A stretch of DNA of 64,000 bases. Origin: Gemmatimonadota bacterium (lineage in GTDB: Bacteria > Latescibacterota > UBA2968 > GCA-2709665). Below the pieces are notes generated by a model. The model saw nothing but the letters and a program-made list of their open reading frames with translations, was not told the origin of the DNA and did no database searches. The DNA lies in NCBI GenBank assembly GCA_028877215.1, contig JAPPFJ010000024.1, forward strand, positions 110,989-174,988. Reading direction: 5' to 3'. Position numbers and translations under genes: made by a program. Shown here in pieces: positions 4,765 through 45,908 of this stretch (its first letter is position 1; each line of letters starts with the position of its first letter).

Positions 4765-4889
4765 GCCTAAAGTTCGAAATTGGCGCGCAGGCACGATATT
4801 GCGGGATGAGACAGCTAATTTGTGGAACAGAAAATTTACATAAATAACGGTGTTTATGTTACTTACGTAACACTTAGGCTTTCCGGACG

Positions 4890-6578
4890 TCAGAAGCAGA
4901 AGATCATGAATGCGGCGAGAAAGACTGTCACGACCAACACGGCAGTACCCGTTGTCCAGGATCGACCCAGAATGCCCTGGGGACCGTGGTATTGACGGCA
5001 GCCGGAAACGGCTGCCGCGACCAGCGCCTTTCCGCCCTCGAGGATCGACTTTCCGGCGTAACCACCCGACCGCGCCATTACCCGGACGATACCGGGAAGC
5101 AGCCGTCGATAAACCCAGTCGGTATCCAGGTTTACGGACCGGTGTACGGCCGGGTAAATTCCGGTACGCTTCAATACAAGGAAGGCCAGGGCGGAAAAAA
5201 ACAACAATTGGAACTGCGTAACCAGGTGGCTCGCCGTATAGGGTTCGTAATTCACTTCGTAGGGCAGAATCCCGTAGAGTAGTTTCGGAATGATTCCTAT
5301 CAGGACGCAAATTGCGGCTGCTGCGCCCATTGCGATGCGCATGTTCAGAGGCGCCTCCCTGCAGCGAATTCCCGAATCTGCGGAGAAGAAGGCAAGGTAG
5401 GGGATCCTGATGCCTGTATAGAGCATCACGCCCGCCGAAGCGAACAACAACGCCAGCCAGGTCAGGACGTAGTGTCCATCGGCCACCGCCCCAAGGATAA
5501 ACGATTTGCTAACAAAGCCGTTGAAGAACGGGACGGCCGAAATCGACGCCGCGCCGATGATGCAGAAAACCGCCGTCAGAGGCATGGACCGGTAAAGCCC
5601 GCCCAGTTCCGATGCCCTGGCCGTACCAGTACGAAAAAGCACTGCACCCATCGTCATAAACAGCAAGGCTTTGTAGATGACGTGGGTGACGGCGTGGGCG
5701 GCCGTTCCGTTCAGGGCCATCTGCGTCCCGATCCCGACTCCGACGACCATGAATCCCAGCTGGATGTTCAGGCTATAGGCCAGCACCCGCCTGAGGTCGT
5801 TTTCCATGACCGCGTAAAACATGGGAAACACGGTCATCGCGGCGCCAATCGGGATCAGGATTTCCGTACCGGGAAAGCCCCGGGCAAGCGCGTAGACCGC
5901 CAGCTTGGTTGTGAAAGCGCTCAGGAACACGGTCCCGGTTACCGTCGCCTCCGGATAGGCGTCAGACAGCCAGTTGTGGAGCAGGGGAAACGCGCATTTG
6001 ATCCCAAAAGCAATGAAGACGAGCGTCGTGCCCAGACCGTTCAGTCCCAACGCTTCAAATGCGATAGACCCCGTCTCACGCGAATGGATCAGAATGCCCG
6101 CCAGCAGAATCATGCCCGAGCAGACCTGCACGATCAGATAGCGCATGCCGGCGGCATAGGCGCGGTTGGTTCGGCGGCTCCAGATCAGGAATACGGAAGA
6201 AATCGCCGACAGTTCCCAGAAGACGAACAGGGTAATCAGATCGCCCGCGAAGAGGGCGCCGACGGCGCTGCCCGCATAGAACAGGCCCGCGACGTGCTGC
6301 GTGTTGTCCTTCACGTGGAGCGCATAGATGACGTTCAGCAGGGCGGCGATATGGAAGATATAGCCGAAGACAAGGCTGAGGCCGTCGATGCGCACCAGCG
6401 TAAGGGAATAGTCGAAGATTCCGATCCTGCAGTATTCCCCCGGGTTTAGCCCGAGCAGATGGGCAAGCCCGGCAACCGGAAGCAGCAGCATATAGGCCGA
6501 CTGCAGGCGCCCGCGCAGCATCGGTATCAGCAGCGACCCGATAATCAGGATCAGCGCCGGCGGCAACTGGTCAATCAT
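4890..6578 (-). CDS. Proton-conducting antiporter-like membrane subunit (MrpD/NuoL family)
   Basis: 562-aa polytopic ORF with ENDLRRVLAYSLNIQLGFMVVG and FFNGFVSKSFI; follows Mrp genes. Confidence 0.85.
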   Translation of the reverse strand: MIDQLPPALILIIGSLLIPMLRGRLQSAYMLLLPVAGLAHLLGLNPGEYCRIGIFDYSLTLVRIDGLSLVFGYIFHIAALLNVIYALHVKDNTQHVAGLFYAGSAVGALFAGDLITLFVFWELSAISSVFLIWSRRTNRAYAAGMRYLIVQVCSGMILLAGILIHSRETGSIAFEALGLNGLGTTLVFIAFGIKCAFPLLHNWLSDAYPEATVTGTVFLSAFTTKLAVYALARGFPGTEILIPIGAAMTVFPMFYAVMENDLRRVLAYSLNIQLGFMVVGVGIGTQMALNGTAAHAVTHVIYKALLFMTMGAVLFRTGTARASELGGLYRSMPLTAVFCIIGAASISAVPFFNGFVSKSFILGAVADGHYVLTWLALLFASAGVMLYTGIRIPYLAFFSADSGIRCREAPLNMRIAMGAAAAICVLIGIIPKLLYGILPYEVNYEPYTASHLVTQFQLLFFSALAFLVLKRTGIYPAVHRSVNLDTDWVYRRLLPGIVRVMARSGGYAGKSILEGGKALVAAAVSGCRQYHGPQGILGRSWTTGTAVLVVTVFLAAFMIFCF

Positions 6579-28932: not shown

Positions 28933-29280
28933 ATGGATCTGGACATCAGTTGGGAGCGGAAGGACGGAGTCCTGATCGCTGTGGTCGCGGGTCGGATCGA
29001 TGGCAACAATGCCGATGTTCTCCAGGATACTCTGGAGTTTGGAATCGGTCCGGAAGACCGTGCTTTGATTCTGGATTTCGAGCGGGTCACTTTCATCAGC
29101 AGCGCGGGCCTTCGCGTTGGTGTGATCATCGCCTGGAAATTCAAGGACCCCGGAATGCAATTCGGTGTCTGCACCCTCGCCGATCCTGTCCGGCACGTTA
29201 TCACAGTCAGCGGTTTCGATCAGATTATTGACATCTTCGAGTCGCAGGCGGAGGCCATAGAGACGTTCAGGTGTAATTGA
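28933..29280 (+). CDS. STAS domain protein / anti-anti-sigma factor-like
   Basis: 115-aa with VTFISSAGLRVGVI (STAS phospho-Ser region). Confidence 0.9.
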   Translation: MDLDISWERKDGVLIAVVAGRIDGNNADVLQDTLEFGIGPEDRALILDFERVTFISSAGLRVGVIIAWKFKDPGMQFGVCTLADPVRHVITVSGFDQIIDIFESQAEAIETFRCN

Positions 29281-29349
29281 GTTCCAACCCGCCTGCTTTC
29301 CATTCACCTGTGAAACGGAAGACCTACCTAACCGAATCGGAGTACCGAA

Positions 29350-29622
29350 ATGAACAGCAATGAAGAAAAAATCGGATCGATGCAAAGCGCGGTGGATATG
29401 GAGATCGTTGGGGACAACATTTCGGACATCGCTGAATTCACGGTTGAAAAATACGAATTCAGGATTGACAGCACCCTCTCACCGGAGGCACGCGAGAAAG
29501 CGGTCGCCGCTATTGAGGAAGCTCTGTGGAAGCGGGTTGCGGAGTTGAATTTGCTGCGCAAGCAGTATCTGGCAGGGTTGTTCAGTTTGGCCGACGAGAC
29601 GCTGGGCGAGATTGTCGATTAG
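29350..29622 (+). CDS. Hypothetical protein
   Basis: 90-aa ORF between the STAS and permease genes; no family recognised. Confidence 0.55.
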   Translation: MNSNEEKIGSMQSAVDMEIVGDNISDIAEFTVEKYEFRIDSTLSPEAREKAVAAIEEALWKRVAELNLLRKQYLAGLFSLADETLGEIVD

Positions 29623-30107
29623 AGGCAACAACGCTTGTTTCGCTCATGTCAGATGTATCTGAAGCGTTCGGTGAGTCTTGATTTAACCTCATTCGGAAAA
29701 AACAGCAACGCGGCGACGCAATCAAATCCTCCGAAACGGGGTGTTATCGACCTATGGAGTGTCGTTTTTTCCTTTCACGTCCAGTGACCTGGTGTATCCT
29801 GGTAATCCGCCGTCTAATCGCCTTTATTTACAAGCACATATTCGAATTAACGTCCCCGAAGACTTACGAATCAAGGTTAACCTCAGCCGGCAAGATCATG
29901 CCGGATATGTGTCAGGGAGGATGAATTCGGAGGTCGGAACCGTCGGTCTTTGAATCAAGAGAAGCCCTTTTTAATTTCCGATTTACGGGCAGCCCGCGTG
30001 CTGTGGGCACGCGGGCGACCTGCAAAGGATTTTAATAGGGCTTTTTCGTTTTGTATCTTGAGGCAGATTCACCCGACTCCGCGGACACAGAATGGGAGGC
30101 GCATCAG

Positions 30108-31850
30108 ATGCCAGCCCCTGAAAGCGAAAGAATCCGCTACGAGCGCGACGAGAGATGTCCCTGGCCATTGGCCTTCAGTGTGGGCATTCAGGGTCTCGTG
30201 ATCGTACTGGCGCCGACGGTGTTGATTGTGGCCATCACGGTTCTTGCCGCCGGCCAGGATCAACGCTTCATGTCGTGGGCTGTGTTCGCAGCACTTATCC
30301 TTACCGGAGTTGCCACCGCTTTGCAGGCGGCCAGAATCGGCAGGGTGGGCGGCGGCCATCTGCTCATCACGGGCGTAACTCCTAACTTCATCGCCGTCTC
30401 GATCCTGGCGCTTGAGGAGGGCGGTCCCGCATTGCTGGCGGGTCTCATGGTCGTCTCCTCGTTTTTCTACGTCGCAGTGGGAGCCTGGCTGCCGCTGCTG
30501 CGCCGTATCATAACGCCGGTTGTCTCAGGTACCGTGCAGATGCTTATTGCGGCCATGGTCCTGCCTTTCGCCCTCGATCGGCTGAAAGACGTACCGGACG
30601 GCGCATCCGGTGCGGCGGGTCCGTGTGTGGCGGCGGTGACCCTGGTCGTTTCGACAATGCTGATTCTGCGCGCGCCCAGGTCCTGGCGGCCGTGGTCTCT
30701 TCTGGCGGGAATAGCCGCCGGCTGTGCGGCAGCCGCGCCGTTCGGGCTCTACGATTTCGCGCGATTGAGCGGTTCATTGTGGGTTGGAGTCCCCGACAGC
30801 GGATTTCCGGGACTGGACCTGACGCTCAACGCAGGTTTTTGGGCATTGCTGCCCATGTTTCTCATTGTGACCCTGGTACAAGCCATCAAGGGCATCAGCG
30901 ACGGCGTGGTGGCGCAACGTGTGGCGCTGAACAAGCCCCGGGCGACCGATTTCCGATTGATCCAGGGGTCGCTCTATGCCAACGGCGCGGGCATCCTGAT
31001 GTCCGGAATCGCCGGAACGCCGCCTACGAGCACCTACTCATCGTTCACGACGTCACTCATCAATCTCACGGGAGTGTCCGCCCGCACCGTTGGATATGCA
31101 ATGGGCGGCCTTCTGGTGATCCTGGCTTTCTTCCCCAAGGTAACGGGTGTCCTGCTCACAATTCCCGGGCCGGTTATGGGAGGCTTTCTTCTGTTCGCCC
31201 TCGGCATGTTTTTCGTCGAAGGAATACAGACCCTGTCCCGCGCCGGCCTGGACCTGCAGCACGCCATCGTGGCGGGGCTGGCGTTTTCCATCGGACTCGG
31301 TATGCAGCACCGGAATATCCTGGAGGACCTCCTGGGAAATCCCTGGGGCGCATTGCTCGGCAACGGGATGACCATCGGCACGGCGACGGCGATCGGGCTG
31401 ACGGCGTTCCTTGAACTGACCAGTCCACGCCGCCGGCGCCTGGAGGGCCGGCTGGATATATCCGAACTTCCCCGTATCGACGCGTTTCTTAGGGAGATTG
31501 CAGACGGGATGGGCTGGGACGCCGCCGCGACCGGGCGGTTGCGCTCCGCGGGCGAGGAGACGCTGGCGAGTCTGCTGGAGCCGGAAAACGAGATTTCTAC
31601 GGACCACGTGCCGCGCCTGATCGTCGGTGCCCGCAAAGAGGGTGAAGCCGTGGAACTGGAATTCGTAGCGGTTTCTGACGAAGAGAACCTGGAAGATCGT
31701 CTCACTTTTCTCGACGAACAGGCGGAGACACCTGACGAAGGCGAGATATCGTTTCGCATACTACGGCATTACGCATCGTCGGTCCGGCACCAGAAGTACC
31801 ACGGCATGGACATTGTTACCGTGCGGGTGACCCGGAAGGCAGGTTCTTGA
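30108..31850 (+). CDS. Nucleobase (NCS2/xanthine-uracil)-type permease with C-terminal degenerate HATPase/RsbW-like domain
   Basis: Polytopic N-terminal ~430 aa (SLC23-like), soluble C-terminus ISELPRIDAFLREIADGMGWDAAATGRLRSAGEETLASLL...GEISFRILRHYASSVRHQKYHGMDIVTVRV. Confidence 0.75.
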   Translation: MPAPESERIRYERDERCPWPLAFSVGIQGLVIVLAPTVLIVAITVLAAGQDQRFMSWAVFAALILTGVATALQAARIGRVGGGHLLITGVTPNFIAVSILALEEGGPALLAGLMVVSSFFYVAVGAWLPLLRRIITPVVSGTVQMLIAAMVLPFALDRLKDVPDGASGAAGPCVAAVTLVVSTMLILRAPRSWRPWSLLAGIAAGCAAAAPFGLYDFARLSGSLWVGVPDSGFPGLDLTLNAGFWALLPMFLIVTLVQAIKGISDGVVAQRVALNKPRATDFRLIQGSLYANGAGILMSGIAGTPPTSTYSSFTTSLINLTGVSARTVGYAMGGLLVILAFFPKVTGVLLTIPGPVMGGFLLFALGMFFVEGIQTLSRAGLDLQHAIVAGLAFSIGLGMQHRNILEDLLGNPWGALLGNGMTIGTATAIGLTAFLELTSPRRRRLEGRLDISELPRIDAFLREIADGMGWDAAATGRLRSAGEETLASLLEPENEISTDHVPRLIVGARKEGEAVELEFVAVSDEENLEDRLTFLDEQAETPDEGEISFRILRHYASSVRHQKYHGMDIVTVRVTRKAGS

Positions 31851-34070: not shown

Positions 34071-35117
34071 TCAGATTAGCGAATGAATCTCGAGGAATTC
34101 GCGCATCGCCTCGACGCATTCCGCGGGTTGTTCCAATTGCAGGAGGTGGGTCGTTTCAGGGAGGAAATCGTAGTCGACGGTGACGATATCGCTGAGATCG
34201 AGCGTCGGCAGATAGGAAAAAGGAAGAGTGGGATCTGCGCCGATGACCTTCAGTGGGCAACGGAATTTCGGAAAGTCAACGAGCACGGCAAACGTGGCGG
34301 CGTAGTCGACGATCTGCGCTTCGTATTCCCGGGGACACCTGAGTTCGAAACCTTGCCCGTTCGAGCATCTGCGAAGGGTCGTTCTCGCCACAAGCTCGAA
34401 GACGCCCGGCACAACGCGCTGGAAGGTCGGCAGGTAGGGGAGTACGTCCGCGAATTCCTGCCTGGCTTCGAAATGGTTCGCGCGGCGCCGCGTCATTGCG
34501 GCTACGCGTTCAGCCGCGGCATCGAATTCTTCGTAACTGGCTCCGTGCTTGCACAGTGGAGGGTCGAACAGAACGCATGCGGAGAATCCGCTGCCTCTGG
34601 CGGACGAGAGTAGCGTGGTCAGGGCGGAAACCGAATGGAATACGCCTATTCTCGGTTTTTTTTCGAATTGCCGGTCGATTGCTTCGAGAATACGGTCGTG
34701 ATCATTGACGAACGTCGGGACGCTATGTTCATGAATGGAACTGACCGGGTTCCAGCCGTGGTTCCTGAGGTCGTAGACCATCACGTCGAAATCGTCCGTC
34801 AGCAGAGACCAGAACGGATAATAGAGATCGATCGCGAGACCGTTGCCATGACTCAATACGAGACGTGGACCCTCAGGGTTTCCATGACGCCGCAACGTGA
34901 TGCGGGTGTTGTCGTCCACGAGGACGTCAATCGTGGCATGCGGCTCGGGGATTTCCCATATCGTTTCCGGGCGCGTGGACAAATGGCAGATCTCTCCAGG
35001 AAATCGTTTCAACGATGCGGTGGCCGCGGGATCTGACGGCGCCGCATTGAATTCCCTTAGAAGCTGTTTTAAAATTACCGGTGAGTTCCCGAGCGCGAGC
35101 GAAAATGTGGCGGCCAA
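34071..35117 (-). CDS. Alpha/beta hydrolase fold protein
   Basis: GNPEGPRLVLSHGNGLAIDLYYPFWSLLTDDFDVMVYDLRNHGWN; start uncertain because the N-terminus lies in a dispersed repeat. Confidence 0.8.
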   Translation of the reverse strand: MAATFSLALGNSPVILKQLLREFNAAPSDPAATASLKRFPGEICHLSTRPETIWEIPEPHATIDVLVDDNTRITLRRHGNPEGPRLVLSHGNGLAIDLYYPFWSLLTDDFDVMVYDLRNHGWNPVSSIHEHSVPTFVNDHDRILEAIDRQFEKKPRIGVFHSVSALTTLLSSARGSGFSACVLFDPPLCKHGASYEEFDAAAERVAAMTRRRANHFEARQEFADVLPYLPTFQRVVPGVFELVARTTLRRCSNGQGFELRCPREYEAQIVDYAATFAVLVDFPKFRCPLKVIGADPTLPFSYLPTLDLSDIVTVDYDFLPETTHLLQLEQPAECVEAMREFLEIHSLI

Positions 35118-35627: not shown

Positions 35628-36674
35628 TTATGTAGAACGGTTGTTCGCTTCGATCCAGTGACGGCGGCGCTGGAACGGATAGGACGGGAGCGAGATGCGG
35701 CGACGGGATTCGCCCGCGAACAACCCCTTGAACGAAACCGCTTGTCCCGTCTCGAAAACACGCGCGAACGCCTCCGTGATACCGCCGTCATTTGCGTCCG
35801 TGTTTTCGTCTGCTGCAAATCCCAGGCTGTCAATCACATCCGGCGCCTCGCCGCCCTTCGAGATGGTCGGCCAGGCTTGAACGATTTCGGGACCGGGCAA
35901 TGCCGCGGGGCCGATCCCCACGACAACCTGTACGCCCAGCTCGGCCAACGTGTCGATGCAATTTCGGAACGGCACCGGCTCATCGACCTGGCGTTGCCAG
36001 TACTCCGCATCCCCGGCCTCGTCAGATGTAATCAACCTCCCGGTGACGTGGCTGATCAGGTCGACCGAAGGCGTTTTGGCCGTGACGTCCAGGGATCCGT
36101 TGGCGGCGCGGGCGGCCGAAAACCCCAATCCCTCCTCCAGGCTGAAGACCCCCGCGGCCTGTGCTGCCGCAAGCTCGCCGGTGTCTCGTCCAACGACCAC
36201 GTTCGGCCGGATTCCCACGCTGGACCATAGCGCCGTAAGCGCGCATTCCAGCGCATAGGCGGTCGGCTGCGCCCACGCGGGATCGTCCAGCAGGCCCTCC
36301 GATCCGGCGCGCCCGAACACAATGTCCAGGAGCGAGTCGCCCCGAATTTCGCCAAAGGCCACCTCGCAGCGATCCAGTACCGCACGAACCACGGGCTCCG
36401 TTTCGTACAGCGCCAGGACCACGTCGGCACGATGGCGGGCATCTCCGGAATATGCGAATGCAACCTTGCCAGCCGCCGCCCGGCCCGGCGATCCGGCAGC
36501 TTCCGCCACCGTCTTCAGGCCGTCCCGCAACGACCGGGCGTCGCTGAAAACCACGCCCGCCCTGTAGTCCAGATGGCTCCGGCATGTCCCCGCGGTCCAG
36601 GCCATATCCGCGAGCACGTCCTGCAGCGCTTCTTCGGAAGCCGTCTCTGCAGCCCTGTCGTCGAGCCAGTCGAC
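35628..36674 (-). pseudogene. Degenerate PKS acyltransferase domain, in frame with and downstream of the PKS amber codon
   Basis: Same frame as PKS ORF; homologous to AT of module 1 up to KGLFAGESRRRISLPSYPFQRRRHWIE but GHSxG replaced by GRDTG. Confidence 0.75.
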
Positions 36675-39600
36675 CTACCGCCCCGCCAGGTCAATCAGCG
36701 CGCCACCCGCCTTCCCGGAAAGCGGAAGGAAACGCGTCTTCCGCGGTTGACACACGTTGTTCTCCGGGACCGCCAGGTCCGCGATCGGCTCCGGCAGTGA
36801 TACGTCGACGAAGCGTGCGGCGCCCGCGGGGACGAGGTTCGCATCATTGCGTGAAGCGTCCTCCGATGCGTAACCTTCCACCACGACGTGGGCGTTCGTG
36901 CCCGAAACGCCGAAGGCGCTCACCCCTGCTCGCGGCGGTCGATCGGTGTTGGCCGGCCAGTCGGTGTTAGCCGACACCACGCGCACCGGCAGGCTGTCCC
37001 AGTCCACGTGCGGGCTCGGTTCGCTGAAATGCAGGTTCCGGGGAATCACACCGCGTTTCATCGCCAGGACGGTTTTGACAAGGCTCGCAACCCCCGCAGC
37101 GGGCTCGAGATGGCCGATGTTGGTCTTCACCGAACCCACCAGCAACGGCCGTTCGGCGTCACGTTCCCTGCCGTAGACCGCCGCCGCGGCGTGAATCTCG
37201 ATCGGGTCGCCGAACCCCGATCCAGCCCCGTGCGCCTCCAGATAATCCACCTCCGAAGGGTCGACGTTCCCGCGCGCAAGGGCGGACTCGATGACCCGCT
37301 CCTGCGCGGGGCCGTTCGGGACAGTCGGGCCGGCGCTCGCTCCGTTCTGGTTCACCGCCGAACCGCGAATAACGCCCCAGATGCGGTCACCGTCGGCCTC
37401 GGCCCGGCCAAGCCGTTTGAGAACGACCATACCACAGCCTTCGGCTCGCACGAATCCGTCCGCGGATGCATCGAATGCCCTGCACCGCCCGCTTGGCGAC
37501 AACATCCCCAAATCTGCCATTTCTCTCGTCAGATCAGGCGAAAGAGCGGCGTGGGAGCCTCCAACAAGCGCCATGTCCACTTCGCCCGCCCGCAGGGCAG
37601 CGACCGCGTAATGTACCGCAACAAGTGATGACGCACAGTTGAGCTCCACCGGGATTGTGGGGCCCTCCAGTCCCAGTACGAAGGAAAGACGTCCGACGGC
37701 CATGCTGGCGGCGGTATTCAGATAGCTGACACCGTAGTCATCGCTGGACATCAGAGCCCGGTATTCGCTGGTGGAAATACCCGCATACACTCCCGTGAGG
37801 GTGCCCCGCAACCGATCCGGATCCATCCCCGCGTCCTCAAGCGCCTGCCAGCTCGTTTCCAGCAGCATCCGCTGACGAGGATCCATCGTGCGCGCTTCGA
37901 TCGGCGTAATCCGAAAGAACCTCGAGTCGAATCGATCGATCTCATCCACGAATCCGCCCTGCCGGTACGCGGCGTACTCGACAGGAAGGTCTTTGGCGAA
38001 GCCGCCCCAGGCACCGGAGTCCCCGCGTCCGTCCGTCACCGCGTCTTCGCCCGCTTCGAGGCCGCGCCAGAATGCGTCGAGATCGGGTGCGCCGGGGAAC
38101 CGGCACGCCATACCCACGATCGCAATGCCGTCTTCCTCCTTTTCCTGTCGCACGACCGGCTGAGGCTCCGGCTCGGGTTCTTCCTCGGCGACCGGTTCAC
38201 CGCTGACCTCGCCCAGCTCTCCTGCCAGATGACGCGCGAGACTGGCGATGTCCGGGTAGTCGAATACCACGGTATTGGGTACGACGTACTGGTCGGCAAA
38301 TGCCCGGTTCAGGCGGTTTCGCAGCTCTACGGCCATAAGCGAGTCCATACCGAGATCGAAAAATCCCACCGAAGGCTCCGGCGCCGCAGGAAGCCTGAGC
38401 ACCGCCTGCACCTCCTGCTGCAGGAACGACACGAGCAACTCCTCCGGCGCCGCGGGGGCTCCACGCAGCCGGGACATCAGGTCCTCAGGAGACGCAGCCG
38501 TGCCGGCCTCGTCATCCGTTGTCGCGGAAAGCAGATCATCGAGAAAGGGCGGGCGGTCCTGGACAGCCTCCTCGAACACGGACCAGTCCATCGACATCAC
38601 TACCGAATTCGTAACGTCCTGGCGTACTAACTGGTCGAACGCCCGCATACCCTGCTGCGGGGTGAACCAGCGCCCGCCGAGCGCCGACCGCTGCCGGTCG
38701 ATCCGTTCCCGCTGTTCCGCGGCCTCGCCGATTTCCGACCACGCCCCCCAGGCGATGGCCTGTCCGGGGAGTCCCAGCGCGCGGCGATGACCGGCGAGCT
38801 GATCCAGAAACGCGTTTGCCGAAGCGTGGTTCGCCTGGCCGGGATTTCCCATGACGCCGACCCGGCTGGAGAACAACACGAACATATCCAGATCGCGGTC
38901 CGCCGTTGCCCGATGCAGGTGCCAGGCGCCGAGGACCTTCGGCCAGAGCACCGTTTCGAATCGGTCCCAGGTCTGGTTGGTCAGTGCGCCGTCGGAGAGC
39001 ACACCCACGCTGTGGATCACGCCTCCGAGCGGTGGGAGTGTCGCATCCATCCTCTCAAGCATCTCGTCAATTGCGGCGGCGTCCGTGACGTCCGCCAGTT
39101 CTACCTGCACCGTAGCGCCGCCGTCACGCAGCCTGCGAATCGCTTCCTCGGCCTCGTCATCGGGCGCCCGGCGTCCGTTCAACACGATGGCGCCTGCGCC
39201 GCGGTCTGCCAGCCAGGCCGCGACGGCGCATCCGATTCCGCCCAGACCACCCGTAACGAGATAGGTCCGGTCCTGGCGCAACCTGCCGTTCTGCACGGGC
39301 GGCGTTGTTACGACGATTTTCCCGAGGTGGCGTGCGGCGCGCATGAAGCTCAGGGCGGCTCCGGCCTCGGCGAGCGGCCACCTGCTGTGGGTAATCGCTT
39401 TGAGTTCTCCGGACGAAAGGCGAGCCATTACATCCCGGAGGACCCTTCCCACCCATTCGGGGTCGGTCTTTTTCATCACGTCCAGTTCAAGGATGTGGTA
39501 AGGCACGTCCGGGCGCACCGCGGCCATCTCGTCCTCGCTCAGAATGTCCCGTCTGGCCATTTCCACGAAGCGTCCGCCGCGCCTGAGGCAGGAAAGGCTC

Positions 39601-42600
39601 GCATCGATGAAGCCTTCTCCGGTAAGGCTGTTCAGTACCACGTCCACACCCTCGCCGTCCGTGGCCTCCAGGATTTCCCGGCCGAAGTTCGTCGTGCGGC
39701 TGTCGAAAATGTGTTTCACCCCCAGCGATCGGAGATACGCTTGCTTGGGCGCGCTGGCGGTGGCGAAGACCTCCGCTCCCGCGGCCTGCACCAGCTGGAT
39801 GGCAGCCAGTCCGACGCCGCCTGCCCCCGCGTGAATCAGAACCCGTTCGCCGGCCTCAAGACCGGAGAACTCGAATGACAACGCCGCGGACACGAACGCG
39901 CTCGGTACCGTGGCAAGTCCGGAGACCGAGTATCCCGATGGCGCGGGCGCCACCAGTTGCTCGTGCGTGACCATCTGCTGACCGAATGCACCGAAACCCA
40001 ATCCGACCACGTGGTCGCCCACCGAAACGGTTGATACTTCGGCGCCGACCTCGAGGACGTGGCCGCACATTTCCCTGCCAAGGTTTCCCTCTTCGATAAA
40101 GCCGAGCGACCGAAAGACATCCCAGAAATTGAGCCCGGCCGCTTCCACCTCAACGCGAACTTCCCACGGCTCGAGAGACCGTGCGGGCAGCGGGAGGACC
40201 TGCGGCCGGTCGAATACGCCGGTCGGATCCGGAGCCAGCACCCAATCCGACGCCTCGGGAAGCGACAGCCGCTCCCCTTCGGTTCCGGCCTGAACCAGGC
40301 GCGCCACCTGACGGCGGCCGGACCGATACGCGATGTGATTTTCGGAATCCGGATAGAGAAGCTCGTTCGCGAGATCGGGCGCGGGCGCCATCTCGCCCGG
40401 GTCCAGGTCGATCATCCGCGGCTGGAGATCAGCCGCTTCACGGGCTACGGCCTTGCCGAAGCCCCACAGCGTTGCGCCGACGAGTTCTCCGCCCCGCTCG
40501 CGTTCCAGTACCTGGGCGCCCCGTGTGATCAGCCAGACTCCGTTTTCCGGAACGACGTCGGCGTCGGCGATGCCCTGCACGAGCGCCAGCGCGCTCGCGC
40601 CCGCCCGCTTCACGTCCTCCGCCATCTCCCGGGTTGTGGCCTGTTCCCCGTGGCCGTCCAGTCCCGCGAGATGCACGACGCCGCGCAGCGGCACTCCGTC
40701 AGGCAGATCTGTCAGAAGCGCGGACCAGGACTCTCGACAATCTGTTTCCACGCTGGCGTTGAAGACACCCGCGACGTCGCCCGCGGGCTCTTTGTCGTCC
40801 CGCGTTTCTCTGCCGGCAAGCATGACTGTCTGGTCCCGCGCGGCCAATTCGGCTGCCATTCTCGACGCGGAACCTCCCTGGTCCGCGGCCAGAACCCAGA
40901 CGCCGGGAGCCTCGGCCACTTTCGCCGGACCCTGCGCCACGATGACACCCTTGTCGAGCGTCCGGGACGTGTCGGACTCGTCCGCCCCCAGGACTTCAAC
41001 GCCTTCGAATCCTGCTCCGCCCAGGGCATAGCGCCAGACCGGGGGACCGGCGAGGGCGTGGTGGGGACGGTAGTCGTCGGCGAACCGCCACCAGCCGTCC
41101 AGCTGTCCGAAGGTCAGGTCCATCCATCCCAGCCCGCTGAGGTTTTCGAGTGCGATCAGGTGCCCTGACGGCGCGAGAAGGTCCCGGCAGTGGGCCAGCG
41201 TCTCGCTCAGGTACCGCGTCGCGTGCAGCACGTTGGATGCGATCAGCAGGTCGTAACCGTGGGCGTCGAAGCCCTGCTCAACCGGGTCCTTTTCGATATC
41301 CAGCGGACGGTACTCGATGCAGCCGCCGCCGTCGCCGAACCTCGCTTCCGCCTCGGAAAAGAAGCCCGCGGAGATATCCGTATACATGTAGTCGAACTGC
41401 CCATCGGGAAGTTCCGGAAGTACGGAAGCGGTCGCCGATCCGGTTCCCGCTCCGACCTCGATGACTCTCAGGCGCCGGCCTTCGGGCAACGCAGCCACCA
41501 GCGCCCGGACCGCATCCGCCAGCATCCGGTTCGCAGCGCGTGCGACCGGCGCCTTCAGATACAGATCGGCCGCTGTCGGTTCACCGCTGCTGAACAGAAG
41601 TGTCAGCGGATCTTCACGACCGCGAAGCACCTCCGCCAGGGCGTTGCCGGAACGCCTGAACAGGCCGGTCTCGATCTGGCCGTCGGGGTGCAGGTCGACC
41701 ATGCGTGAAGCGAACTCCTCGAGGTCGGCTGGCAGGCCTTCGGGGAGCGGATCACCAGGCCCCACGACCACAGTAAATCCGTCGCCCGCTTCCTCCACGA
41801 CCCCCGACCTGGCGAGCATCTCGAACAGCCGCCGAAAGAGGCGGCTGTGCTCCGGAAGGACGTCCAATTCGTCCCGCAACACCTCCGGATCGACGGTTTC
41901 TCCTGCCTGCCGCCGCCACCCCAGCTCTTCCAGCGTCGCGAGCGCGCGGGACCGCGACCACCGTTCCAGGTCCGCCAGCAAGGCGTCCCGGTCATCGGGA
42001 TCGACTCCGGCGTCCCTGAGATATCCGGCGAACGTCTGTGACCCTGACGCGACGGTCGCCGGGGTCGGGAAGAAACCCGCGGACGTTATTCCGGCAGGAA
42101 GGTCGCAATCGCGCCAGACGACCTCGTACAGGAGGTCTTTGACGCCTTCGACCGCGGCGAGCAGCGCTTCCTGCGTGGCCCGTTTTACCGTGTACCCGCT
42201 CAGGCGGCCAAGATGCGCACCGTTCGGGTCGTAAATGTCAATCTCACCGCTGAGCACCTCAGGGGGCTCACCGGCCGCGGCTTCCGCCTCGCTGGATGCT
42301 TCGCTGAGCCGCACGTGACAAACAACCCGGTCCGGCAGCGTTCCCGCCAGCCAGAGCCGCTCCCACGCGAACGGCAGATACGCGGCTCCGCCCTCATTGC
42401 CTGCCAGATTGCGCGCCGCGCCCACAACCTGGAAGCAGCCGTCCAGTACGAGCGGATGGACATCCAGACCATGCCCTGAAAGCGACTCCGGAAGAGACAC
42501 CTCGCCCAGCGCCTCGCCCGGACGCGACCAGACCCTGCCAAGCGTACGGAAGAACGGTCCGAGGTCGACGCCGGTACTCGCCCTGTGGCGGTAGTAGTCC

Positions 42601-45600
42601 GTCACGTCCATGGGCGAAAGCAGGTTCTTCACGCTTTCGAGATCGATTCGCCCGACAGGATCGGGAGCCGGAGCTCCCGGCGCAAGAACGCCCTCCACGT
42701 GGACGGTCCAGTCTCCTTCGCCGCCTCTGCTGAAGATCTGGACACCGCGCGGTGAACCCGGTTCGCGGGTATCGAGCCCGACCTGCATCCTCCTGCCCGC
42801 TTCACCCGCGCCGTCTTCGTCCTCTTCGAAAACCAGGGCATTGTGCAACTGGAAGTTCTCCACGACCACGGGACCTGCTTCCTCAAGGCGAGACGCGGCA
42901 CAGGCCATCGCGCCGTAGAGCGCGCCGGGCGCGACGATCCTGCCGAATACCTTGTGATCGTTCAACCAGGCCGGGTCCGACGGAAACACTTCCGTCTCGA
43001 AGGTAACCTCTCCACGCGCGGATTCGTGCCGGACGCCAAGCAGCGGATGGCCGGCTCCGCCGGCCCGTCGTCTCGGAGGCTGGATCCAGTGTCGACGGCG
43101 CTGAAACGGATAGCTGGGCAGAGAGACCCGTCGGCGGTTCTCCCCCGCGAAGAGCCCGGCGAAGCCAACCGGGAGTCCCGCCTCGTATGCCTCTGCCACT
43201 GCCGCTACGAAACCATCGGCATTCCGGGCCTCCGCAGCGCCGTCCGAAGGCGGGCAGAGGCTGGACAGCACCACCGGCGCCGGTGTTTCCGGCGATTCCG
43301 GCCAGGACGCGGCCGCCAACGGAGCGAGTACAGACCGCGGACCGATCTCCAGCACCACGTCGACGCCCTGATCCGCCAGCGTCTTCACGCCCTGGGCGAA
43401 CGCCACCGCCTCCCGTGCGTGCCTGCGCCAATAAGCGCCGCCCTGAGTCTGCCCCGGTTCTACGGCCAGCCCCGTCAGGTTGCTGACAACGGTAAGTGAG
43501 GGAGACCGGATCTCCAGGCTGTTGAGGAAGCTCTCCAGTTCGTCAAGAATGGGCTCAACGAGGGCGCTGTGGAACGCCTTGGTCGTGTTCAACCGCCTGA
43601 CTCTCACGCCTGCCGTGGCGAATTGATTCGAGATCGCCTCGATGCCCGCTGTTGGACCACTGACAACCTGGTGGGTACCGTTGTAGCCCGAGATGCTCAA
43701 CCCGGCATCCTGAGATGTCGCGTTCACGACTTCCTCGACGCGATCGGCGGGCGCAAATACGGCGGCCATGCTTCCCGGTTCCATCTTCGACATCAACGCG
43801 CCGCGTACCGCTGCGAACCGCATTCCGTCCTCCAGGCTGAATACCCCCGCCGCCTGCGACGCCGCGAGTTCCCCGATGCTGTGTCCCAGAACGACGTCGG
43901 GACGGATACCGACGCTCGACCAGAGCGCCGTCAGCGCGCATTCCAGCGCGTAGAGAGCCGGTTGCTCCCAGGCCGTGTCGCCGAGTTCCCCCTCGCTTCC
44001 GACGTTTCCGAACATCACGTCCAGCAGCGAGGCTCCCCGTTCTTCAAGAATCACCGCCTCGCAGCGGTCCATCACCGCCCTCGCGACCGGCTCGGTCTCG
44101 TACAGTCCCCGTCCCATGCCTGCCCACTGGCTCCCCTGTCCCGTGTAGGCGAACGCCACTCGGGCGCGGGTCCGCGAGAAGGAGCCCAGGTTTCCCTCCC
44201 GGACTTCCCCAAGCCGATTTCGCAACGATTCAAAGTCCTGGAAGACGACGCCGGCGCGGTGGTCGAAGTGGCTCCGGCCCACGCCCGCGGTCCAGGCCAT
44301 GTCCGCCAGTATCTCACTTTCGTCGGAGGAGATTTCGTCAGCGCCTTCCCCCAGCCGCGAGAGGTAACGCCCGGCAAGATCGCACAGCGCACCATCGGAT
44401 TTTCCCGATAGCGGAAGCAGGCGGACCCGGCGCGGTTGGACTTTCCGTTCCGCGATCGGGAGATCCCCCACCGCTGCCGGCAGTGAGACCGCCACGGGCA
44501 TCGCGGCACCGGCAGTCCCTGGTATTCCGGCGGCGTCCGGCGCACGGTATTCCTCCATTACGATATGGGCGTTGGTCCCGGATATGCCGAAGGAGTTAAC
44601 ACCGGCGAGTCGGGTACTCCCCGGACGGCGCGGCCAGTCCATCATCGACGACGTCACCCGCAGGGGCAGCCGGTCCCAGTCCACGCTCGGATTGGGATCC
44701 CGGAAGTGGAGGTGCTTCGGGATCACGCCCCGATTCAGTACGAGTGCGGTCTTGATCACACCTGCTACGCCGGCGGCCGACTCCAGGTGGCCGATATTGG
44801 TTTTCACGGATCCGATGAGGAGCGGCCGGTCGGTCTTTCGTCCACGCCCGTAGACACTCGCCACGGCATCGATCTCGATAGGGTCGCCGACGGTGGTTCC
44901 CGTCCCGTGCGCCTCGAGGTAATCCACGTCCAGCGGGGAGACGCCGCCCTCGGACAATGCGGTTTCGATCACCTCTTCGAGCGCAGGCGTGTTCGGCACC
45001 GTCAGCCCCGTGCTGGCCCCGCCATGGTTCACCGCCGAGCCCCGGATGACCGCCCAGATCCGGTCCCCGTCCGCCTCAGCCTCGCTCAGCCGCTTCAGCA
45101 CGACGACCCCGCAGCCCTCGCCGCGCACGTAGCCGTTTGCCGAGGCGTCAAAGGTCTTGCATTGCCCGTCCGGAGACAGCATCATCGCCTCCGCGCGCAA
45201 TTCGTAGATGCGACCGTTCAGTATCGCCTGCACGCCGCCGGCGATGGCCAGATCGGCTTTGCCCTGCTGCAGGTCCGCCACTGCGTCATTGACCGATACC
45301 ATGGACGACGCGCACGCGGCGTCGACCGCCTTGGCCGGACCCCTGAGCCCCAGTACGAACGAGACCCGGCCGCTGGCGCCGTTCAGGTTCGTGCCGCTGA
45401 GGGCATAGAGACAGCCGGCAGCTTCGGCGGGCTTGATCGAGTCCACCACCAGCATTCGGTATTCGTCGTTGCTGATCCCCGTGTAAACGCCCGTGCGGGT
45501 CTCTCTCAACCCCTCCGGATCGATTCCGGCGTCTTCAAGCGCCTCCCAGCTCGTCTCCAGCATCATTCGCTGTTGCGGATCCAGAAACTCCGCTTCCACG

Positions 45601-45908
45601 GGCGAAATCCGGAAAAAGGCGTCGTCGAAGAGGTCGATGTCGTCGACGAACGCGCCGAAACGGCAACCCTCACTCTGCCCTGCGTTTTCGGCGAAGATCT
45701 GCCCCCAGCGGCCTGTCCCGGAGCCCGGGACACCCTCACCCACGGCATTCCCGCCGGCTTCGAGCAATCGCCAGAATGAAGCGATGTCCGCCGCGCCGGG
45801 GAATCGACACGCCATGCCCACGATTGCTATCGGCTGCACGGACCCGGAACTCGTGCTCCGGTCGTCCGGGTTCCCCAGGGATTCAATGTGCCCATCTGCT
45901 TCCATCAT
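36675..45908 (-). CDS. Type I polyketide synthase, KS-AT-DH-cMT-ER-KR-ACP-KS
   Basis: KS1 (VDAACASS, EAHGTGT, NIGHLE), AT (GQGSQ, GHSIGE, KAFH), DH (HKVFGRIVAPGA), cMT (VIEVGAGTGSAT), ER (HAGAGGVGLAAIQ), KR (TYLVTGGLGGIG), ACP (LGMDSLMAVELRN), KS2 (ELNCASS). Confidence 0.95.
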   Translation of the reverse strand: MMEADGHIESLGNPDDRSTSSGSVQPIAIVGMACRFPGAADIASFWRLLEAGGNAVGEGVPGSGTGRWGQIFAENAGQSEGCRFGAFVDDIDLFDDAFFRISPVEAEFLDPQQRMMLETSWEALEDAGIDPEGLRETRTGVYTGISNDEYRMLVVDSIKPAEAAGCLYALSGTNLNGASGRVSFVLGLRGPAKAVDAACASSMVSVNDAVADLQQGKADLAIAGGVQAILNGRIYELRAEAMMLSPDGQCKTFDASANGYVRGEGCGVVVLKRLSEAEADGDRIWAVIRGSAVNHGGASTGLTVPNTPALEEVIETALSEGGVSPLDVDYLEAHGTGTTVGDPIEIDAVASVYGRGRKTDRPLLIGSVKTNIGHLESAAGVAGVIKTALVLNRGVIPKHLHFRDPNPSVDWDRLPLRVTSSMMDWPRRPGSTRLAGVNSFGISGTNAHIVMEEYRAPDAAGIPGTAGAAMPVAVSLPAAVGDLPIAERKVQPRRVRLLPLSGKSDGALCDLAGRYLSRLGEGADEISSDESEILADMAWTAGVGRSHFDHRAGVVFQDFESLRNRLGEVREGNLGSFSRTRARVAFAYTGQGSQWAGMGRGLYETEPVARAVMDRCEAVILEERGASLLDVMFGNVGSEGELGDTAWEQPALYALECALTALWSSVGIRPDVVLGHSIGELAASQAAGVFSLEDGMRFAAVRGALMSKMEPGSMAAVFAPADRVEEVVNATSQDAGLSISGYNGTHQVVSGPTAGIEAISNQFATAGVRVRRLNTTKAFHSALVEPILDELESFLNSLEIRSPSLTVVSNLTGLAVEPGQTQGGAYWRRHAREAVAFAQGVKTLADQGVDVVLEIGPRSVLAPLAAASWPESPETPAPVVLSSLCPPSDGAAEARNADGFVAAVAEAYEAGLPVGFAGLFAGENRRRVSLPSYPFQRRRHWIQPPRRRAGGAGHPLLGVRHESARGEVTFETEVFPSDPAWLNDHKVFGRIVAPGALYGAMACAASRLEEAGPVVVENFQLHNALVFEEDEDGAGEAGRRMQVGLDTREPGSPRGVQIFSRGGEGDWTVHVEGVLAPGAPAPDPVGRIDLESVKNLLSPMDVTDYYRHRASTGVDLGPFFRTLGRVWSRPGEALGEVSLPESLSGHGLDVHPLVLDGCFQVVGAARNLAGNEGGAAYLPFAWERLWLAGTLPDRVVCHVRLSEASSEAEAAAGEPPEVLSGEIDIYDPNGAHLGRLSGYTVKRATQEALLAAVEGVKDLLYEVVWRDCDLPAGITSAGFFPTPATVASGSQTFAGYLRDAGVDPDDRDALLADLERWSRSRALATLEELGWRRQAGETVDPEVLRDELDVLPEHSRLFRRLFEMLARSGVVEEAGDGFTVVVGPGDPLPEGLPADLEEFASRMVDLHPDGQIETGLFRRSGNALAEVLRGREDPLTLLFSSGEPTAADLYLKAPVARAANRMLADAVRALVAALPEGRRLRVIEVGAGTGSATASVLPELPDGQFDYMYTDISAGFFSEAEARFGDGGGCIEYRPLDIEKDPVEQGFDAHGYDLLIASNVLHATRYLSETLAHCRDLLAPSGHLIALENLSGLGWMDLTFGQLDGWWRFADDYRPHHALAGPPVWRYALGGAGFEGVEVLGADESDTSRTLDKGVIVAQGPAKVAEAPGVWVLAADQGGSASRMAAELAARDQTVMLAGRETRDDKEPAGDVAGVFNASVETDCRESWSALLTDLPDGVPLRGVVHLAGLDGHGEQATTREMAEDVKRAGASALALVQGIADADVVPENGVWLITRGAQVLERERGGELVGATLWGFGKAVAREAADLQPRMIDLDPGEMAPAPDLANELLYPDSENHIAYRSGRRQVARLVQAGTEGERLSLPEASDWVLAPDPTGVFDRPQVLPLPARSLEPWEVRVEVEAAGLNFWDVFRSLGFIEEGNLGREMCGHVLEVGAEVSTVSVGDHVVGLGFGAFGQQMVTHEQLVAPAPSGYSVSGLATVPSAFVSAALSFEFSGLEAGERVLIHAGAGGVGLAAIQLVQAAGAEVFATASAPKQAYLRSLGVKHIFDSRTTNFGREILEATDGEGVDVVLNSLTGEGFIDASLSCLRRGGRFVEMARRDILSEDEMAAVRPDVPYHILELDVMKKTDPEWVGRVLRDVMARLSSGELKAITHSRWPLAEAGAALSFMRAARHLGKIVVTTPPVQNGRLRQDRTYLVTGGLGGIGCAVAAWLADRGAGAIVLNGRRAPDDEAEEAIRRLRDGGATVQVELADVTDAAAIDEMLERMDATLPPLGGVIHSVGVLSDGALTNQTWDRFETVLWPKVLGAWHLHRATADRDLDMFVLFSSRVGVMGNPGQANHASANAFLDQLAGHRRALGLPGQAIAWGAWSEIGEAAEQRERIDRQRSALGGRWFTPQQGMRAFDQLVRQDVTNSVVMSMDWSVFEEAVQDRPPFLDDLLSATTDDEAGTAASPEDLMSRLRGAPAAPEELLVSFLQQEVQAVLRLPAAPEPSVGFFDLGMDSLMAVELRNRLNRAFADQYVVPNTVVFDYPDIASLARHLAGELGEVSGEPVAEEEPEPEPQPVVRQEKEEDGIAIVGMACRFPGAPDLDAFWRGLEAGEDAVTDGRGDSGAWGGFAKDLPVEYAAYRQGGFVDEIDRFDSRFFRITPIEARTMDPRQRMLLETSWQALEDAGMDPDRLRGTLTGVYAGISTSEYRALMSSDDYGVSYLNTAASMAVGRLSFVLGLEGPTIPVELNCASSLVAVHYAVAALRAGEVDMALVGGSHAALSPDLTREMADLGMLSPSGRCRAFDASADGFVRAEGCGMVVLKRLGRAEADGDRIWGVIRGSAVNQNGASAGPTVPNGPAQERVIESALARGNVDPSEVDYLEAHGAGSGFGDPIEIHAAAAVYGRERDAERPLLVGSVKTNIGHLEPAAGVASLVKTVLAMKRGVIPRNLHFSEPSPHVDWDSLPVRVVSANTDWPANTDRPPRAGVSAFGVSGTNAHVVVEGYASEDASRNDANLVPAGAARFVDVSLPEPIADLAVPENNVCQPRKTRFLPLSGKAGGALIDLAGR

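What the first reader, a model, noticed from the sequence alone, without database searches (positions are those of the whole stretch)
28933..31850. Possible partner-switching control of a nucleobase permease
A STAS protein, a 90-aa unknown and an SLC23/NCS2-like permease are colinear. The permease carries a C-terminal domain resembling RsbW-type HATPase folds (helix GRLRSAGEETLASLL, terminal strand GEISFRILRHYASSVRHQKYHGMDIVTVRV) but with degenerate N and G boxes. STAS and RsbW-like proteins are classic antagonist pairs; linking one to a UraA-fold transporter (which is related to STAS-bearing SLC26) suggests a transport-coupled signalling switch.
Basis: partly seen in the sequence, partly recalled or inferred. 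Interest (0 to 1): 0.7.

Follow-up and report, generated by a model that had tools for sequence, protein, structure and literature searches.

The report
Transporter with dead anti-sigma-kinase domain
Bacteria that appear to live in sponges carry many copies of an unusual membrane transporter whose tail is a former signalling kinase that has lost its ATP site, and the gene often sits next to the polyketide (fatty-acid-like) synthase genes typical of sponge bacteria, which suggests a protein-controlled transporter for that pathway.

Summary
The three genes are real and under purifying selection. The permease (start ATG 30108) has an SLC23/NCS2 fold, and its C-terminal ~135 aa is predicted to adopt the RsbW/SpoIIAB anti-sigma-kinase fold (Z 16.2, 2.0 Å to B. 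subtilis RsbW). The N, G1 and G2 boxes are lost in 53 of 53 relatives, yet the domain is more conserved than the membrane part.

Two parts of the interpretation do not hold as written. 'Nucleobase' is doubtful: the substrate-binding Glu (UapA TM8) is Lys in 50/58 relatives and in all 30 PKS-linked ones. The STAS gene is not an obligate partner: within 6 kb it occurs only in this genus. STAS plus the 90-aa protein is its own cassette, sometimes fused, elsewhere next to a SwfA-type synthase.

The dominant context is a PKS cluster: 44 of 81 loci, from several phyla, carry PKS, hydrolase or PPTase genes. A published fosmid has permease (best hit SupE), STAS, 92-aa protein and SwfA in a row. Most likely this is a SupE-type transporter with an ATP-dead RsbW-like docking domain. 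STAS binding is plausible, not shown.

The parts
28933..29280 (+). STAS-domain protein (115 aa), SpoIIAA/RsbV type with FISSAGLR phosphosite-like motif
   Evidence: PF01740 1.3e-15; TIGR00377 above cutoff; PDB best 1auz SpoIIAA 2.1e-7; Ser56/Ser57 invariant in 9 homologues
29350..29622 (+). 90-aa protein of unknown function, the STAS companion; same size and position as the published POR_0546-like ORF19
   Evidence: Homologues directly downstream of STAS in five other genomes and fused C-terminally to STAS in seven of eight further genomes examined; published analogue PMC3908369
29945..30062 (+). Hairpin with U tract between the 90-aa gene and the permease: terminator or leader
   Evidence: MFE -59.2 kcal/mol, z -6.5; conserved in two congeneric genomes; single copy in the genome; no Rfam match
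30108..31850 (+). SupE-like permease with C-terminal RsbW-like domain (580 aa)
   Evidence: PF00860; AlphaFold2 model pLDDT 85, pTM 0.80
30108..31430 (+). SLC23/NCS2-fold membrane domain (residues 1-441); Lys261 at the UapA TM8 Glu position
   Evidence: VIA Z 42.2 to UapA 5i6c, 40.0 to UraA 8oo1; residue counts
31431..31832 (+). RsbW-like GHKL domain with lost ATP site (residues 442-575)
   Evidence: Foldseek PDB: ranks 1-19 are all RsbW/SpoIIAB/UsfX entries; VIA Z 16.2 to 6m37_C; PF13581 1.3e-5 in a paralogue; motif counts
34071..35117 (-). Alpha/beta hydrolase conserved next to the permease in 35 of 81 loci
   Evidence: Neighbour clustering; PF12697 1.4e-12
36675..45908 (-). Type I PKS, KS-AT-DH-MT-ER-KR-ACP-KS
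   Evidence: Pfam domains; PKS cluster near the permease in 37 of 81 loci
35628..36617 (-). AT-containing continuation of the PKS, same frame, separated by one in-frame stop
   Evidence: PF00698 2.8e-22; translation across the stop

Best explanation
The permease is a member of the SupE family: an SLC23/NCS2-fold secondary transporter fused to a cytosolic domain descended from an RsbW-type anti-sigma kinase. Shown (by prediction and comparison): the fold, the loss of the ATP site, the strong constraint on the domain, and the linkage to type I PKS clusters in several phyla. Inferred: the domain is a pseudokinase-like docking module at the place where SLC26/SulP transporters carry a STAS domain, and it gates or positions the transporter by binding a partner protein, most plausibly a STAS protein. 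In this genus the adjacent STAS plus 90-aa cassette is the likeliest such partner. Any phosphorylation of that STAS would have to come from another kinase; the genome has two intact HATPase_c_2 proteins. Inferred: the substrate is not a classical nucleobase, and the Glu-to-Lys change suggests an anion related to the linked PKS pathway.
For: Fold: (ranks 1-19 are anti-sigma kinases; Z 16.2 against RsbW; histidine-kinase-type GHKL domains are at Z 7.5 or less). Homology: PF13581 at 1.3e-5 in a paralogue and hhalign E 1.2e-4, probability 54%, with the phylum's own RsbW-like proteins. Dead ATP site: N-box Asn, G1 DxG and G2 GxG absent in 53/53, while E484, E518, D530, R553 and H561 are invariant. 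Constraint: 30% of domain columns conserved at 90% or more, against 18% in the membrane part, and 63% in the last helix to beta5. PKS linkage: 44 of 81 loci. Glu to Lys at the UapA TM8 Glu in 50/58 and in all 30 PKS-linked proteins. Published permease-STAS-92 aa-SwfA row (PMC3908369). STAS cassette next to the permease in all four congeneric genomes.
Against: Only 3 of 80 fetched permease loci have a close STAS homologue nearby, and only 8 of 49 permease-bearing genomes reached through the fetched loci hold the 90-aa companion at all. The cassette persists where the permease is broken (L042). A hairpin with a U tract lies between the cassette and the permease. The helix-1 position that I align with the SpoIIAB Arg20 partner contact (recalled from memory) is Arg in only 23/53. 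Substrate and direction of transport are untested.
Confidence: 0.5

Rival explanations
1. The C-terminal domain does not bind STAS proteins; it is a repurposed dimerisation or ligand-sensing domain, and the polar residues filling the former ATP pocket bind something else.
For: Invariant or nearly invariant polar residues replace the ATP motifs (E484, E518, N527, D530, E546, S548, R553, H561, Y564, D568). Nearly all fused genes have no STAS gene beside them.
Against: The closest structural matches are specifically the STAS-binding anti-sigma kinases, but a shared fold does not prove function.
Confidence: 0.3
2. STAS and the 90-aa protein are an independent regulatory cassette of sponge-symbiont PKS/FAS clusters, neighbours of the permease in this genus by cluster assembly and not because they interact.
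For: The cassette lies beside SwfA-like synthases in other genomes. It is intact where the permease is broken. A hairpin separates the units.
Against: The same three kinds of protein are neighbours in a second, differently ordered locus (PMC3908369). All 9 surveyed genomes with the 90-aa gene also have the permease, against 25 of 60 overall (p 1.4e-4, not corrected for phylogeny).
Confidence: 0.4
3. Active partner switching: the permease domain is a working kinase that phosphorylates the STAS protein.
For: Fold and the invariant N-box Glu484.
Against: N-box Asn, G1 Asp-x-Gly and G2 Gly-x-Gly are absent in 53/53 sequences.
Confidence: 0.03
4. An ordinary nucleobase transporter with a decaying tail of no function.
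For: The membrane part matches PF00860 and the UraA/UapA fold.
Against: The tail is more conserved than the membrane part and is under purifying selection; the binding-site residues are changed.
Confidence: 0.03

Closest known systems
SupE permease of the sponge-symbiont sup PKS cluster (ABE03914), and ORF17 of fosmid pPS11G3 (PMC3908369)
   Same: Permease near a sponge-symbiont type I PKS; ORF17 has a 115-aa STAS and a 92-aa protein beside it, as here
   Different: The paper read here does not describe an RsbW-like domain; the sequences could not be fetched, so homology to SupE rests on the published best hit of ORF17 and on context
NCS2/SLC23 nucleobase transporters (UraA, UapA, XanQ)
   Same: Fold of residues 8-441, Z 40-42
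   Different: TM8 Glu replaced by Lys, TM10 Gln-Asn-x-Gly absent, extra C-terminal domain
RsbW/SpoIIAB/UsfX anti-sigma serine kinases
   Same: Fold and topology of the C-terminal domain
   Different: No ATP motifs; fused to a transporter instead of being soluble
SLC26/SulP transporters with C-terminal STAS
   Same: Related membrane fold and a cytosolic signalling-type domain at the C-terminus (general knowledge)
   Different: Here the C-terminal domain is RsbW-like, the partner fold of STAS, not STAS itself

Membership tests
RsbW-type GHKL domain (fold) | beta-alpha-alpha-beta-beta-alpha-alpha-beta-beta topology matching solved anti-sigma kinases | tested here: met
   (predicted model)
RsbW-type serine kinase (enzyme) | N box E-x3-N, G1 DxGxG, G2 GxGL | tested here: not met
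   Glu kept; the Asn, the DxG and the GxG are absent in 53/53
RsbW-type serine kinase (enzyme) | Binds and phosphorylates a STAS partner | not testable with these tools
   No co-folding or biochemistry available
NCS2/SLC23 permease (fold) | UraA/UapA membrane fold, PF00860 | tested here: met
NCS2 nucleobase:cation symporter (function) | TM8 Glu and TM10 Gln/Glu-Asn-x-Gly substrate motif | tested here: not met
   Lys261 in 50/58; TM10 motif not present; TIGR00801 and TIGR03173 below their curated cutoffs
STAS anti-sigma-antagonist | PF01740 and conserved Ser before Ala-Gly-Leu | tested here: met
Partner-switching module | STAS and GHKL genes conserved together | tested here: not met
   Adjacent in this genus only among the 80 fetched loci; one further published locus
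sup PKS cluster (SupA/SupE) | Single-module type I PKS with MT domain, SupE-type permease nearby | tested here: inconclusive
   Domain order and linkage fit what I recall of SupA; no reference SupA or SupE sequence was available

The most novel reading that the evidence does not exclude
A mirrored SulP design: an SLC23-fold transporter family, spread over several phyla of sponge symbionts, uses an ATP-dead anti-sigma-kinase domain as a receptor for a separate STAS protein, so that a signalling switch built for sigma factors gates export or import in the symbionts' methyl-branched fatty-acid (Sup/Swf) pathway.
Probability: 0.25. Interest if true: 0.8.

Novelty: new variant of a known kind. Interest (0 to 1): 0.55.

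Why it matters
SupE has been in print as a plain 'permease' beside some of the most abundant PKS genes in sponge microbiomes. Recognising a conserved pseudo-anti-sigma-kinase tail and a charge-swapped binding site turns it into a testable regulated transporter. It also widens the range of proteins that RsbW-like domains are fused to, and gives a concrete handle on how sup/swf products or precursors may cross the membrane.

Tried and rejected
Single-sequence searches of the C-terminal domain against Pfam and PDB gave nothing useful, nor did its profile against PDB sequences; it took paralogues and the fold. The full-length fold search listed only transporter hits, which is why the domain was folded alone. 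A STAS in contig 33 near a permease paralogue proved to be part of a SulP transporter. TAG stops flagged inside some relatives' permease matches did not fall inside the aligned coding part, except in L014/L042, which is broken. No Rfam family matches the intergenic hairpin. 'of' with locus ids is not accepted, so co-occurrence in other phyla was tested by handles instead. Literature searches for a described transporter-RsbW or GHKL fusion found none in the held library.

Full report
Observation. The three colinear genes exist where reported. STAS: 28933-29280, PF01740 1.3e-15. The 90-aa ORF: 29350-29622, no family match. The permease frame starts at 30051, but homologues point to ATG 30108, giving 580 aa. 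Against congeneric genomes dN/dS is 0.09-0.28 for the genes compared, so they are functional genes. The gap between the 90-aa gene and the permease is about 486 bases and contains a single-copy hairpin with a U tract (MFE -59.2 kcal/mol, z -6.5). It is conserved in the two congeneric genomes with an intact permease, so one operon is not shown.

The permease C-terminus. AlphaFold2 of the full protein on 58 relatives gives pLDDT 85 and pTM 0.80, with a beta-alpha-alpha-beta-beta-alpha-alpha-beta-beta tail. The tail folded alone (pLDDT 79) has its 19 best Foldseek matches among RsbW, SpoIIAB and UsfX chains. VIA-align gives Z 16.2, 2.0 Å over 112 residues, to B. subtilis RsbW; histidine-kinase ATPase domains are at Z 7.5 or less. 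Sequence support is independent but weaker: PF13581 at 1.3e-5 in one paralogue, and hhalign E 1.2e-4, probability 54%, with the phylum's own RsbW-like proteins.

ATP site. In 53 sequences the N-box Asn is Ser/Thr/Cys/Ile, no G1 DxG and no G2 GxG remain, but Glu484 is invariant, as are E518, D530, R553 and H561. The domain is more conserved than the membrane part (30% against 18% of columns at 90% or more; 63% in the last helix to beta5). This is a repurposed domain, not a decaying one.

The membrane part. It matches UapA (Z 42.2) and UraA (Z 40.0), with SLC26 transporters among the next matches. In the alignment to UapA, Lys261 sits at the TM8 Glu of the 'CECIGD' stretch, which I know as a xanthine ligand; it is Lys in 50 of 58 and in all 30 PKS-linked proteins. 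The TM10 Gln-Asn-x-Gly motif is gone. Curated NCS2 cutoffs are not reached. A nucleobase substrate is therefore doubtful, and an anionic one is a reasonable guess.

Distribution. A scan of one genome per species found 531 relatives. The 80 best come from MAGs filed under Latescibacterota, Gemmatimonadota, Chloroflexota, Acidobacteriota, Binatota, Actinobacteriota, Dadabacteria and others. Many carry isolate codes that I recognise as sponge-microbiome series (RHO, COS and IRC fit sponges named in PMC8163846); this was not checked record by record. Nearly all complete frames are fused. In the window's phylum 24 of 64 genomes have it. In one Dehalococcoidia-centred class sample 32 of 294 have it, most of them with 2-6 copies.

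Context. Of 81 loci (window included), 44 hold a PKS, an alpha/beta hydrolase or a PPTase near the permease, and 18 hold a DUF1330 gene. In the window the hydrolase (34071-35117) and a type I PKS (36675-45908, KS-AT-DH-MT-ER-KR-ACP-KS, plus an AT part at 35628-36617) lie downstream on the minus strand. This fits the sup cluster of sponge symbionts. Della Sala et al. 2013 (PMC3908369) list, on fosmid pPS11G3, a 557-aa permease whose best hit is SupE, then a 115-aa anti-anti-sigma factor, then a 92-aa protein, then SwfA. So a trio of this kind is already in print; the passages read there call the first gene only a permease.

The STAS partner question. Within 6 kb of the permease a close STAS homologue occurs only in the same genus. 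STAS and the 90-aa protein form their own cassette: side by side upstream of a SwfA-like synthase in five other genomes, and as one fused protein in seven of eight further genomes examined. One congener (L042) has an intact cassette but a permease without its N-terminus and with an internal TAG. All nine surveyed genomes with the 90-aa gene do have the permease, but phylogeny and shared habitat confound this. STAS docking onto the permease tail is thus the natural hypothesis from the fold, with supportive but not decisive gene-neighbour evidence.

Mechanism. I commit to a SupE-type secondary transporter whose ATP-dead RsbW-like tail is a protein-docking regulator in a PKS-linked pathway (0.5). 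The weakest steps are the identity of the docking partner and the substrate.

Noticed in passing
window 36675-36677 (minus strand): A single in-frame stop splits the PKS between its second KS and the following AT; the frame continues beyond it. Nonsense change, assembly error or real gene end not resolved.
   Followed up: partly
L042 (JAGWBX010000004.1) around 4780-6423; L014: In a congeneric genome the permease lacks its N-terminus and has an in-frame TAG, while STAS and the 90-aa gene are intact.
   Followed up: partly
window 29945-30062: Strong single-copy hairpin ending in a U tract, conserved in the genus, no Rfam match: terminator or leader.
   Followed up: partly
L046, L048, L049, L051 directly upstream of the permease; own contig 33 near the paralogue (L122): Peripla_BP_6-type (LivJ-like) binding proteins recur beside the permease genes.
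   Followed up: no
L068, L071, L073, L076, L083 and others: A second group of these permeases is followed by a ~95-aa DUF1330 gene instead of PKS genes.
   Followed up: partly
G008:C104, G012:C66, G014:C168: An intact HATPase_c_2 gene lies about 7-8 kb from a fused permease in three genomes of one genus.
   Followed up: no
L133, L134, L135, L136: Two or three STAS copies precede the 90-aa gene and a SwfA-like synthase; in L134 one copy looks frame-broken.
   Followed up: no
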